Part shown: piece after piece, positions 1,098-6,193 of the stretch
Numbering within the stretch: the first letter of the stretch is position 1
Layout: each line of letters starts with the position of its first letter
NCBI RefSeq assembly: GCF_000472285.1
Contig: NZ_KI421415.1
Span: forward strand, 48,427 to 95,955
DNA: 47,529 nucleotides
Direction: 5' to 3'
Source: Desulfuromonas sp. TF
GTDB taxonomy: Bacteria; Desulfobacterota; Desulfuromonadia; Desulfuromonadales; ATBO01
Made by a program: the position numbers and the translations under genes
The notes under the pieces: generated by a model
Databases searched by the model: none
What the model was told of the DNA's origin: nothing
Seen by the model: the letters and a program-made list of their open reading frames with translations, nothing else

Positions 1098-2015
1098 ATG
1101 ACCATGGAAACAAATTGGGCGCTCGCCCGCAAAAGGCCGATACTTGAAGAGCGGGCCCGGATCGTTCAGGCAATCCGGGCTTTCTTCATCGAACGGGGCT
1201 ATCTGGAGGTGGAGACCCCCCACCGCATCCCGGGTAACGCGCCCGAAGTACACATCGACGCGGCGGCCGCCGAAGGGTGGTTTCTCCACACCTCCCCCGA
1301 ACTGGCCATGAAAAGGCTGCTGGCGGCGGGCTATCCCAGGCTGTTCCAGATCTGCCGGGTCTGGCGCCGGGAGGAGCGCGGGGGAAAGCACCTCCCCGAA
1401 TTCACCATGCTCGAATGGTACCGGGCGGAGGTCGACTACCGGGCCCTGATGGAAGAGTGTGAGGATCTGCTGCGGAGCCTGATCCCGGACGGGTTCCTGA
1501 TCTGGCAGGGGAAAAGGATCGAACTGGTTTCTCCCTGGGAACGGCTCACGGTCGCCGAGGCTTTTGATCGTTTTGCGACGGTCAGCCTCGAAGAGGCCCT
1601 GGCGACGGACCGCTTCGATGAGATCATGGCCTTCGAGGTCGAGCCGCACCTGGGGCGGGAAATCCCGACCTTCCTCACCGAATACCCCGCCGAACTGGCC
1701 GCCCTCGCCCGAAAAAATCCCGGCAATCCGAAGGTCGCCGAGCGCTTCGAGCTCTACATCGCGGGCCTGGAGCTGGCCAACGCGTTCTCCGAGCTCACCG
1801 ATCCGATCGAACAGCGGCAGCGCTTCGAGCACGACGAGGCGGCCCGCCGGGCCGCCGGCAAGCCCCCCTACCCTTCTCCTGAAAAATTCCTTTCCGAGCT
1901 CGAAACCATGCCCGAAGCCGCCGGCATCGCCTTGGGCGTCGACCGGCTGGTGATGATCCTGACCGGCACCGAAAACATTGATCAGGTGGTAGCCTTCACT
2001 CCTGAATCGCTGTAG
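1098..2015 (+). CDS. epmA: EF-P--(R)-beta-lysine ligase EpmA
   Basis: Class II lysyl-tRNA-synthetase-like catalytic core (305 residues) without an anticodon-binding domain, the hallmark of EpmA (PoxA/GenX). Motif 2 contains FQICRVWRREER and motif 3 GIALGVDRLVMIL. The enzyme activates (R)-beta-lysine with ATP and attaches it to the loop lysine of EF-P, here Lys32 of the gene just upstream. ATG starts at 1098 and 1104 and a TTG at 1086 are all possible; no strong ribosome site separates them because the upstream repeats occupy that space. The 3' end overlaps the convergent amidohydrolase by 20 bases. Confidence 0.93.
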   Translation: MTMETNWALARKRPILEERARIVQAIRAFFIERGYLEVETPHRIPGNAPEVHIDAAAAEGWFLHTSPELAMKRLLAAGYPRLFQICRVWRREERGGKHLPEFTMLEWYRAEVDYRALMEECEDLLRSLIPDGFLIWQGKRIELVSPWERLTVAEAFDRFATVSLEEALATDRFDEIMAFEVEPHLGREIPTFLTEYPAELAALARKNPGNPKVAERFELYIAGLELANAFSELTDPIEQRQRFEHDEAARRAAGKPPYPSPEKFLSELETMPEAAGIALGVDRLVMILTGTENIDQVVAFTPESL

Positions 2016-2709
2016 TCAGGCCGGCCAGCACCTCGCAGACCACCCTCCGCATCTCTTCCCACTCCCTCCGGTCGCCCGCCGGATGCTTCTGGTTCACCTC
2101 GATCTCGATTCCCAGGTAGGATGCCGGAGGAAACCGTCGGCGCAGGGTCGTCACCAAGCTGTCGGAAGTGCCCAGATAGGGATAGTTCCGGCGCACCCGG
2201 AGATGGGGAGCCGCCTGGCGCAGCCCCCGGTGGAGCTCAGCACAGAAATCAAGCTCACCCGGTCGGCGGGGGTCGTAAAGCAGCCCCAGGTCGGCCCGGC
2301 GCTCCATGCCGTCCCACTCGGGGGTGAAGGAATGGAGGGAGAGGTGAACGACCTGCGCGCCAGCCGCGATGTGAGCGGCGGCCTCCGCCGTCACCCCCTC
2401 CCGATAAGGGCGGTAGTATCGGGCCAGAATGCGCTCGCGCTCGGACTGCGGAAGATCCCGGGTGAACTCGGAGAAGAGGGTGCGGCTGCCGGGGGAGCGG
2501 TTCAAATCGACCAGGAGGCGGGTGACGGTCCCGGCATGGAGGGGGACCCCGAGCCTTTCGGCCAGCTCAGCGGCCAGGGGGAGGACGCCGATGTCCTGGC
2601 CGCGGTGACTGGCCAGAAGCTCCCCCGCTCCGGCGAACAGCTCTCCGTAGCGCTCCGGCACCCGGTTGCCGCCATGCTCGCAGCTCACCACCACCCGCCG
2701 CTCAGCCAT
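1996..2709 (-). CDS. N-formylglutamate amidohydrolase family protein
   Basis: 237 residues of the FGase family (COG3741), zinc-type amidohydrolases. Visible family segments are SCEHGGNRVP near the N-terminus, HRGQDIG, LVDLNRSPGS, HLSLHSFTP and GIEIEVNQ near the C-terminus, which hold the likely metal and substrate residues. The start at 2709 overlaps the upstream GCS2 gene by 8 bases. There are no histidine-degradation (hut) genes nearby. Its company (GCS2 ligase, RLAN ATP-grasp ligase, C39-like peptidase) suggests it trims or releases an amide or acylated glutamate product of those ligases rather than N-formylglutamate. That role is inference. Confidence 0.85.
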   Translation of the reverse strand: MAERRVVVSCEHGGNRVPERYGELFAGAGELLASHRGQDIGVLPLAAELAERLGVPLHAGTVTRLLVDLNRSPGSRTLFSEFTRDLPQSERERILARYYRPYREGVTAEAAAHIAAGAQVVHLSLHSFTPEWDGMERRADLGLLYDPRRPGELDFCAELHRGLRQAAPHLRVRRNYPYLGTSDSLVTTLRRRFPPASYLGIEIEVNQKHPAGDRREWEEMRRVVCEVLAGLTTAIQE

Positions 2710-5409: not shown

Positions 5410-6193
5410 GCAGGGAACCTCGTGAGCCCTTGCGAGGGCGGATAATGAGAAGATTGGCATCGTAGGTGAGCACCCCAAGCAGGATGGCGCCAATGGCCCG
5501 GTCGATACTGACTGGGTAATTCTGGACTTCCGCCATGGGATTGGGAAGCAGCGGATCGGCGATCAGTATGCTGCGCACCGTGCGGTCGTAGCCGTGCAGA
5601 ACGACGAAGTGACCGGAAGGCTCGCCACGGATGTCGTCGAAATCTCCGTCGCGCCCGAATTCGCGGGGCGTACGGTAGAGGTAGGTGGCCGAAAGGCCGG
5701 TGATGATCGGAATGGACTTGCTGAGATGGCGGCGGATCAGGCTTCCGGTAAGGTCCTCGAAGCGCAGCTCCCCGCCCAGATCGAGAAATTCGAGGAAGGC
5801 CTCCGAGGCCACATGAAGCTTGGGATCAGGCTTGAAAGCCATCTGCCGGCGCAGCTTGTCCCTCAAGTCGACACCCGGCTCCACCAGCCAGGACGGATCG
5901 AAAAGCTGCAGTTTGTAGGTATAGATGGTGGCCCGGTAGCCGCGCCGCAGGGCGTGGCAGGCGAGAAGCACCGCCAGGGTCCCTCCCCCCTCAAGCATGG
6001 AAACCTCGGAGATGACGCGGGAGAGGGGAATATGGTCCTCGAAATAGGCATAGACTGCCTGCAGACAGGTCGGGCCGCAGGTGATCTCATCAGGCTGGGG
6101 CAGAATCCGAAACGGCAGACGGCTTCTCAAGGCGGCACCGCCAGGGGGGAATAAGGAAGACGCCGGGAAGGCGCTTCTTTGACTGCTTTTCAT
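5384..6193 (-). CDS. C39-like (papain-fold) cysteine peptidase
   Basis: 269 residues. The N-terminal QPDEITCGPTCLQAVYAY holds the catalytic Cys after an oxyanion-hole Gln. GHFVVLHGYD holds the catalytic His, followed by an IADPL segment with the likely Asp, as in bacteriocin-processing C39 peptidases. There is no ABC transporter part, membrane segment or clear signal peptide, so it is probably cytoplasmic. It is first in the ligase cassette and starts 37 bases after epmB ends. Likely jobs are cutting a precursor peptide or removing what the ligases add. A transglutaminase-like transferase activity cannot be excluded. Confidence 0.82.
   Translation of the reverse strand: MKSSQRSAFPASSLFPPGGAALRSRLPFRILPQPDEITCGPTCLQAVYAYFEDHIPLSRVISEVSMLEGGGTLAVLLACHALRRGYRATIYTYKLQLFDPSWLVEPGVDLRDKLRRQMAFKPDPKLHVASEAFLEFLDLGGELRFEDLTGSLIRRHLSKSIPIITGLSATYLYRTPREFGRDGDFDDIRGEPSGHFVVLHGYDRTVRSILIADPLLPNPMAEVQNYPVSIDRAIGAILLGVLTYDANLLIIRPRKGSRGSLHAHSDRRQ

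What the first reader, a model, noticed from the sequence alone, without database searches (positions are those of the whole stretch)
1996..6193. Coupled C39 peptidase, RLAN ATP-grasp ligase, GCS2 ligase and FGase amidohydrolase: a likely peptide- or metabolite-modifying system
All four overlap by 4-26 bases, which implies one protein set made together. It combines two different amide-forming enzyme folds, a cysteine peptidase and an amidohydrolase, so it can build and cut amide bonds. Comparative genomics by Aravind and colleagues has noted RimK/GCS2/FGase neighbourhoods, but I know of no established product. A reasonable model: the C39 enzyme cleaves a precursor or tag, the two ligases add amino acids, and the amidohydrolase trims or releases them.
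Basis: partly seen in the sequence, partly recalled or inferred. Interest (0 to 1): 0.8.

Follow-up and report, generated by a model that had tools for sequence, protein, structure and literature searches.

The report
Conserved four-enzyme amide-bond operon
Four overlapping bacterial genes that build and cut amide bonds are found together in many bacterial phyla, which points to an undescribed way of making or editing a small peptide or conjugate, whose product is still unknown.

Summary
On the minus strand C39 (5384-6193), RLAN-RimK (3931-5409), GCS2 (2702-3934) and FGase (1996-2709) overlap by 26, 4 and 8 nt. Pfam supports all four; the RimK, YbdK/GshA and HutG models of NCBIfam do not. Of 80 RLAN loci kept of 174, 36 carry C39>RLAN>GCS2>FGase and 77 RLAN>GCS2. 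Among 58 genomes of the order, C39 and GCS2 occur in the same 14, all with RLAN; FGase occurs in these and in 6 others. Of 30 RLAN genomes in two samples, 24 have GCS2; the other 6 have a GNAT instead. Fifteen Fibrobacter genomes with RLAN-GCS2 alone keep C39 (10) and FGase (9) elsewhere, side by side in six. Ten of 19 Fibrobacter loci carry a selected 19-aa ORF near RLAN-GCS2. Best reading: a dedicated pathway that builds and trims an amide-linked, probably glutamyl, peptide or conjugate. Product unknown; a glutathione or histidine role is not supported.

The parts
5384..6193 (-). C39-like (papain-fold) cysteine peptidase or transacylase, 269 aa, with no ABC transporter domain
   Evidence: Pfam PF13529 32.5 bits (cut-off 24), PF03412 22.2 (22); 45 of 45 aligned members match PF13529 at E 0.001; Cys, His, Asp and Gln positions invariant
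3931..5409 (-). RLAN-RimK ATP-grasp amide ligase; likely start ATG 5409, ORF open from 5493
   Evidence: Pfam RLAN 161.6 bits, RimK 30.6 bits; AlphaFold2 model pLDDT 88.1, whose C-terminal part matches ArgX/LysX/RimK in the nine best rows, Z 26.8-28.8
4888..5337 (-). RLAN domain (residues 53-202 of P0002); its fold was not searched alone
   Evidence: the structural matches span only residues 221-516 of the model
4033..4560 (-). RimK-like ATP-grasp domain (residues 312-487 of P0002)
2702..3934 (-). GCS2 carboxylate-amine ligase, 410 aa
   Evidence: Pfam GCS2 100.9 bits; AlphaFold2 model pLDDT 95.1; best Foldseek matches YbdK 1r8g/1tt4 (TMq 0.67-0.71) and plant glutamate-cysteine ligase 2gwc (0.60-0.62), then GshA-type enzymes, then PafA/Dop
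1996..2709 (-). FGase (N-formylglutamate amidohydrolase-like) hydrolase; likely start ATG 2709, ORF open from 2829
   Evidence: Pfam FGase 90 bits; nearest solved structure 2odf, E 2.6e-37 with the profile

Best explanation
The four genes are one dedicated enzyme set that assembles and trims a small amide-linked, probably glutamyl, peptide or conjugate. Shown by sequence and comparison: the set recurs as a unit in many phyla; key residues are invariant; where Fibrobacter splits the operon the two ligases stay together and the two hydrolases often stay together; and in other RLAN lineages a GNAT stands in place of GCS2 and FGase, with a C39 of the DUF3335 type in some and none found in others. 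Inferred: GCS2 activates a carboxylate with ATP (by family, the gamma-carboxyl of glutamate) and joins it to an amine, capping the N-terminal side. RLAN-RimK activates the free carboxyl end of the acceptor, which the RLAN domain may hold, and adds an amino acid, most likely glutamate as in RimK/ArgX. C39 cuts or transfers an acyl unit through its cysteine. FGase hydrolyses an acyl-(acidic amino acid) amide and so trims or reverses the ligases. In the GNAT version an acyl-CoA-dependent transfer would do the N-capping. Whether the acceptor is a free metabolite or a gene-encoded peptide is open.
For: Contiguous C39>RLAN>GCS2>FGase in 36 of 80 named loci, 13 of 14 GCS2-bearing loci of the order (own included) and 6 of 13 RLAN loci of the phylum sample (5 of the order's loci are also among the 80). 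C39 and GCS2 in the same 14 of 58 genomes, all with RLAN and FGase. Apart from the four families, the widest neighbour groups are, by eye, signalling proteins at scattered distances (30 loci) and ABC ATPases (8 loci). Pairwise distances of the four proteins correlate over 56 loci (Spearman 0.70-0.79, 0 of 2000 permutations as high for each pair), to which shared organism history contributes. Fibrobacter: six regions hold C39-FGase side by side away from RLAN-GCS2. GNAT instead of GCS2 in 6 of 30 RLAN genomes, with no such GCS2 or FGase anywhere in those 6. A swap within a clade: the RLAN of Desulforhopalus singaporensis groups with two four-gene loci, SH-aLRT 100, and its genome has a GNAT-DUF3335 but no such GCS2 or FGase. 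Folds: RimK/ArgX/LysX and YbdK/GCL.
Against: No substrate or product is shown; no assay was found. FGase occurs without the others in 5 of 58 genomes plus one fragment. FGase is not adjacent in 16 of 80 loci that have C39-RLAN-GCS2 and enough contig (in L108, L113 and L115 it lies 4.7 kb away, in L137 0.8 kb). Of 17 Fibrobacter assemblies, 6 show no FGase and 5 no C39 at all (completeness not told). The Woesearchaeota contig and L079 have RLAN-GCS2 only. The P. aeruginosa plasmid RLAN stands among unrelated annotated genes. In the 6 GNAT genomes no DUF3335 was found and, in the 3 tested, no C39, so C39 is not always needed. Reaction directions and substrates rest on distant families.
Confidence: 0.5

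Rival explanations
1. Protein-end modification: RLAN-RimK adds glutamates to the C-terminus of a housekeeping protein as RimK does on ribosomal protein S6, GCS2 or a RimI-like GNAT modifies the other end or a side chain, and C39 and FGase are the erasers.
For: The catalytic half folds like RimK and the LysW-dependent ArgX/LysX, which act on protein tails; the GNAT of the Azospirillum version passes the RimI cut-off (88.2 against 86.4 bits), so RimK-like and RimI-like enzymes pair there. No precursor gene is needed beside the set, in line.
Against: The GCS2 model resembles ligases of free amino acids more than the protein ligase PafA or Dop (TMq 0.67-0.71 for YbdK, 0.39-0.41 for PafA, 0.41-0.52 for Dop). 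The patchy spread (RLAN in 17 of 58 genomes) fits an accessory pathway better.
Confidence: 0.2
2. Gene-encoded peptide product: the enzymes modify a short ribosomal peptide. In Fibrobacter this is the 19-aa peptide ending DDYIPP(F/Y)KP near RLAN-GCS2; elsewhere the peptide lies away from the operon.
For: In 10 Fibrobacter loci the ORF is always 19 aa, has a Shine-Dalgarno-like sequence, and in its last 9 codons 0, 1 and 9 sites vary at codon positions 1, 2 and 3. It lies within 1.2 kb after GCS2 in 10 of 10, while the gene on its other side was found in 6 of 10 (one of the four misses has only 385 nt of contig left).
Against: One genus only; 9 of the 19 Fibrobacter loci with GCS2 lack it by the motif search; no counterpart beside the set in other phyla; not seen in the 12 regions with C39 or FGase. 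Whether it occurs without RLAN is untested.
Confidence: 0.15
3. Low-molecular-weight thiol or glutathione-like tripeptide: GCS2 makes gamma-glutamyl-cysteine or an analogue, RLAN-RimK adds the third residue as GshB does, C39 acts like phytochelatin synthase and FGase degrades.
For: A GCS-type ligase followed by an ATP-grasp ligase is the glutathione logic (recalled); the GCS2 model matches GCL; glutathione synthetase 1gsa is among the ATP-grasp matches (Z 22.7).
Against: GCS2 scores far below the GshA/EgtA/YbdK cut-offs, and the genome has another GshA-like ligase. RimK/ArgX/LysX match better than GshB (Z 26.8-28.8 against 22.7). The GNAT version does not suggest a thiol.
Confidence: 0.1
4. 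Catabolic or scavenging operon that breaks down environmental gamma-glutamyl or N-acyl amino acids, with the ligases acting in recycling.
For: Two of four enzymes are hydrolases; FGase occurs alone in some relatives.
Against: Two ATP-dependent ligases are costly in a catabolic route; no transporter was seen to recur beside the set (largest group, by eye ABC ATPases, in 8 of 107 loci at scattered distances).
Confidence: 0.05

Closest known systems
RLAN-RimK with GNAT-DUF3335 (C39) neighbourhoods, which I associate with the amidoligase survey of Iyer et al. 2009 (paper not held, recalled; cited for GNAT-DUF3335 in PMC10318531, passage read)
   Same: Same RLAN-RimK ligase and a homologous papain-fold enzyme (hhalign probability 80, E 1.4e-5)
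   Different: Here a GCS2 ligase and an FGase stand in place of the GNAT; no genome tested had both versions
RimK (S6-glutamate ligase) and LysX/ArgX
   Same: ATP-grasp fold over about residues 221-515, Z 26.8-28.8
   Different: Extra N-terminal RLAN domain; 61.9 bits against the RimK family cut-off of 143.4 and 59.1 against the archaeal LysX cut-off of 275.6; C39/GCS2/FGase neighbours
YbdK and plant-type glutamate-cysteine ligase (GCS2)
   Same: Fold and Pfam family
   Different: 66 bits against 176.4 (YbdK) and 17.1 against 463.15 (plant-type GCL)
HutG and other N-formylglutamate amidohydrolases
   Same: Pfam FGase; nearest solved relative 2odf, deposited as a hypothetical protein
   Different: 17.1 bits against the HutG cut-off of 278.75
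N-acetylglutaminylglutamine synthetase (TIGR03103)
   Same: GNAT plus ATP-grasp in one protein resembles the GNAT-RLAN-RimK fusions
   Different: 17.9-36.2 bits against a cut-off of 569 for four GNAT-version proteins, the match only in the GNAT; P0002 is not listed for it

Membership tests
RLAN-RimK ATP-grasp proteins (Pfam RLAN) | RLAN domain over the curated cut-off followed by a RimK-like ATP-grasp | tested here: met
   RLAN 161.6 bits against 25, RimK 30.6 against 21
RLAN-RimK / GNAT version | GNAT next to or fused with RLAN-RimK | tested here: not met
   With four GNAT queries (phmmer, E 1e-4) no hit within 4 kb of the window's RLAN or of the other GCS2-bearing loci; no DUF3335 in G000
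RimK ligase family (TIGR00768) | score over the curated cut-off | tested here: not met
   61.9 against 143.4 bits
YbdK / GshA ligases | score over the TIGR02050 or TIGR01436 cut-off | tested here: not met
   66 against 176.4 and 17.1 against 463.15 bits
YbdK / GshA ligases | gamma-glutamylcysteine formation | not testable with these tools
   needs an assay
HutG N-formylglutamate deformylase | score over the TIGR02017 cut-off | tested here: not met
   17.1 against 278.75 bits
Bacteriocin-processing C39 exporters | C39 domain fused to ABC transporter domains | tested here: not met
   269-aa protein without an ABC or transmembrane Pfam match
C39-like peptidases (PF13529) | score over cut-off with Cys/His/Asp positions kept | tested here: met
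   32.5 against 24 bits; positions invariant in 45 sequences
N-acetylglutaminylglutamine synthetase (TIGR03103) | score over cut-off | tested here: not met
   P0002 has no listed match at E 0.01
Known anti-phage defence proteins (PADLOC-DB) | any model match at E 0.001 | tested here: not met
   0 matches for each of the four proteins

The most novel reading that the evidence does not exclude
The set is a widespread peptide-end-editing system: GCS2 (or a RimI-like GNAT) caps one end and RLAN-RimK extends the other end of a very short gene-encoded peptide, with C39 and FGase as the matching cutters. The 19-aa Fibrobacter peptide ending DDYIPP(F/Y)KP would be its first visible substrate.
Probability: 0.15. 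Interest if true: 0.85.

Novelty: new variant of a known kind. Interest (0 to 1): 0.58.

Why it matters
An uncharacterised ligase-plus-hydrolase set is kept as a unit in bacteria of many phyla, including the isolate Fibrobacter intestinalis ATCC 43854. The GCS2-or-GNAT alternation, the separation into a ligase pair and a hydrolase pair, and a concrete candidate peptide turn a vague neighbourhood prediction into questions that a few assays can answer. If true it would add a new peptide metabolite or a new peptide- or protein-end modification.

Tried and rejected
Rejected: a shared function with EF-P, EpmA, KamA and the B12-radical-SAM gene around the set in the window. In 107 loci searched, KamA relatives occur in 2 (L057 = the window, L098), EF-P only in L057 and the radical-SAM gene in one hit. 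Four further EpmA-profile hits (L085, L109, L116, L130) may be other class-II synthetases; not followed.

Rejected: a precursor ORF conserved beside the set in all phyla. Small-ORF families within 900 nt upstream and downstream of 107 loci (some loci duplicated) were confined to close relatives, and several look like shadows of coding sequence. A small SAP-like ORF upstream in 4 rows, two of them the same record, was left aside.

Led nowhere: paper searches for the set or for RLAN, giving only related reviews; PHROGs gave one weak RimK-type hit; of 8 viral-contig loci, 7 match only from about residue 206 on.

Limits: one search kept the best 80 of 174; its E-values are relative to its candidates. 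The tree (quick method) used 95 of 115 RLAN rows: 5 duplicate loci and 15 Fibrobacter rows were dropped beforehand; its group B of 11 rows includes the P. aeruginosa row, which has no GNAT beside it, and needs 3 changes. The distance test used the 56 non-duplicate loci with all four genes. Thresholds differ between (1e-5; 1e-10; 1e-20; 1e-40). The samples (297 genomes; 294) are not identical; the three RLAN genomes without GCS2 were re-tested.

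Full report
The four ORFs are real and coupled. One search lists them on the minus strand; one search gives Peptidase_C39_2, RLAN plus RimK, GCS2 and FGase over their Pfam cut-offs. Start sites that fit the homologues give overlaps of 26, 4 and 8 nt. NCBIfam puts the ligases and the FGase below the named functional models: RimK family 61.9 of 143.4 bits, YbdK 66 of 176.4, plant-type GCL 17.1 of 463.15, HutG 17.1 of 278.75; it has no match for the C39 protein at E 0.01. 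The genome has another GCS2-family ligase elsewhere that is GshA-like, 419.3 bits to TIGR01436 and so somewhat under that model's 463.15 cut-off.

The set is conserved far outside the window. One scan of genome contigs gave 174 relatives of RLAN-RimK, of which the best 80 were kept. Of these 80, 36 have C39>RLAN>GCS2>FGase contiguous on one strand, 56 have C39>RLAN>GCS2, and 77 have RLAN>GCS2; of the other three, one lacks GCS2 although the contig is long enough (L118) and two are cut by contig ends. Record titles and the tree labels name Desulfuromonadales, Desulfobulbaceae, Balneolota, Bacteroidota, Planctomycetota, Verrucomicrobiota, Chlamydiota, Fibrobacterota, Oligoflexaceae, Nitrospirota, Omnitrophota, Sumerlaeota, Ignavibacteriota and one Woesearchaeota bin (RLAN-GCS2 only). 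Most are metagenome bins, so single placements may be binning errors. In two Chlamydiota loci C39 follows FGase (L091, L101). Clustering of 1571 predicted genes from these stretches, the four families included, gave those four as the groups in most loci (103, 99, 80 and 62). The next were in 30 and 8 loci; by eye they are signalling proteins and ABC ATPases at scattered distances of up to 10 kb and on both strands.

Co-occurrence was tested on whole genomes. In 58 genomes of the window's order (own included), a close GCS2 (E below 1e-140) occurs in 14; 29 more have only distant matches, E above 1e-9. C39 occurs in the same 14, RLAN in those 14 plus G324, G333 and G343, FGase in those 14 plus G306, G307, G322, G323, G332 and a 68-residue fragment in G346. 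So C39, GCS2 and RLAN go together, while FGase also lives without them; the stand-alone FGase genes have varied neighbours. In G309 the FGase is present but on another contig than the other three. In a phylum sample RLAN occurs in 14 of 297 genomes and GCS2 in 11 of 294; the three RLAN genomes without GCS2 are G123, G151 and G186. Altogether 30 distinct genomes carry RLAN, 24 with GCS2 and 6 without. All 6 carry a GNAT adjacent to or fused with RLAN-RimK (confirmed by Pfam for L025, L027, L143 and L144, not run for L026 and L145). None of the 6 has such a GCS2, such an FGase or a DUF3335.

The alternation is informative. Desulforhopalus singaporensis (L118) has RLAN-RimK followed by a GNAT-DUF3335 fusion. 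Its RLAN groups with L023 and L024, which have the four-gene set, at SH-aLRT 100 within the GCS2-bearing part of the tree (quick method). Its genome has no such GCS2 or FGase. Azospirillum and Tistrella plasmids have GNAT-DUF3335-like proteins beside RLAN (Pfam for Azospirillum). Legionella adelaidensis has RLAN-GCS2-FGase on a small circular record, where C39 was not looked for across the record's start. The P. aeruginosa plasmid has RLAN among unrelated annotated genes. The DUF3335 domain is homologous to the window's C39.

Fibrobacter gives a natural break-up. I tested 17 of 20 Fibrobacter loci's genomes: 15 whose RLAN-GCS2 locus lacks C39, and L105 and L108, which have it. Over all 17, C39 is found in 12 and FGase in 11; in the 15, C39 in 10 and FGase in 9. 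Twelve regions were fetched: in six C39 and FGase lie side by side (L146-L151), one holds a second, complete four-gene copy of a genome that also has the split set (L157, G350), and five hold only one of the two (L152-L156). G354, G356, G357, G361 and G363 show neither; their completeness is not told.

A candidate peptide turned up there. Ten of the 19 Fibrobacter loci with GCS2 carry a 19-aa ORF on the same strand after GCS2, 104-135 nt away in 7 and about 1.0-1.1 kb away, beyond one gene on the other strand, in 3. Its last nine codons vary at 0, 1 and 9 of 9 sites for codon positions 1, 2 and 3, which is strong evidence of a translated, selected peptide. The gene on its other side was found in 6 of the 10; of the 4 misses, L121 has only 385 nt of contig beyond the peptide. 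The peptide thus stays with RLAN-GCS2 more than with that gene. All this is one genus, and the link to the enzymes is inference.

Structure. The RLAN-RimK model (pLDDT 88.1) matches ArgX, LysX and RimK in its nine best rows with Z 26.8-28.8 at rmsd 2.1-2.8, all in the C-terminal part. The GCS2 model (pLDDT 95.1) matches YbdK and plant GCL best, then GshA-type enzymes, then PafA/Dop. By sequence profile C39 is nearest to the peptidase domains of ComA and bacteriocin exporters, with a weaker match to a C39-like protein, and FGase to 2odf. Folds do not give substrates.

Literature. Iyer et al. 2009 is not held. PMC10318531 (passages read) says that DUF3335 proteins are often fused to GNAT domains and cites that paper. 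In PMC2922099, PMC4431377 and PMC12419801 (term searches and passages only) the terms GCS2 (all three) and FGase/formylglutamate (the two asked) did not occur; PMC7367687 (passage) was irrelevant. The searches listed no paper on the set in the held library, which lacks most subscription journals.

Verdict. A real, conserved, uncharacterised amide-bond gene set with a glutamyl peptide or conjugate as the likeliest product.

Noticed in passing
window 463-2015 (+) and 6231-7478 (-): EF-P and an EpmA-like synthetase (over the TIGR00462 cut-off) lie beside the set, and a KamA-family radical SAM gene (over TIGR00238, under the EpmB and lysine aminomutase cut-offs) ends 37 nt before C39; the four-gene set sits between EpmA and KamA.
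   Followed up: partly
window 1996-2015: The 3' ends of FGase (-) and the EpmA-like gene (+) overlap by 20 bases, tail to tail.
   Followed up: no
window 23839-24020 (+): 6S RNA (RF00013, 70.5 bits).
   Followed up: no
window 7346-8941 (-): B12-binding radical SAM protein just upstream, below the NCBIfam cut-offs listed (best TIGR03975, RiPP C-methyltransferase, 82.4 of 281.85 bits); not found with the set in other loci.
   Followed up: partly
L109, L111, L116, L121, L123-L127, L130 (Fibrobacter): 19-aa ORF ending DDYIPP(F/Y)KP after RLAN-GCS2, with almost only third-position variation in its tail.
   Followed up: partly
L028 (G228): RLAN-RimK matched in two pieces, with an inner stop in one, and no C39 in the stretch held: possibly a decaying copy or an assembly error.
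   Followed up: no
L160:7471-8193 (-): A stand-alone FGase gene lies next to a protein that looks, by eye and recall, like a proteasome-type peptidase.
   Followed up: no
L170:6001-7125: A contig of the viral collection encodes a relative over residues 33-511 of P0002 at 45% identity, so RLAN-RimK may sit in a provirus or in a misassigned contig.
   Followed up: no
L139:3310-3714: DUF4332 protein after FGase on the Legionella adelaidensis record.
   Followed up: no
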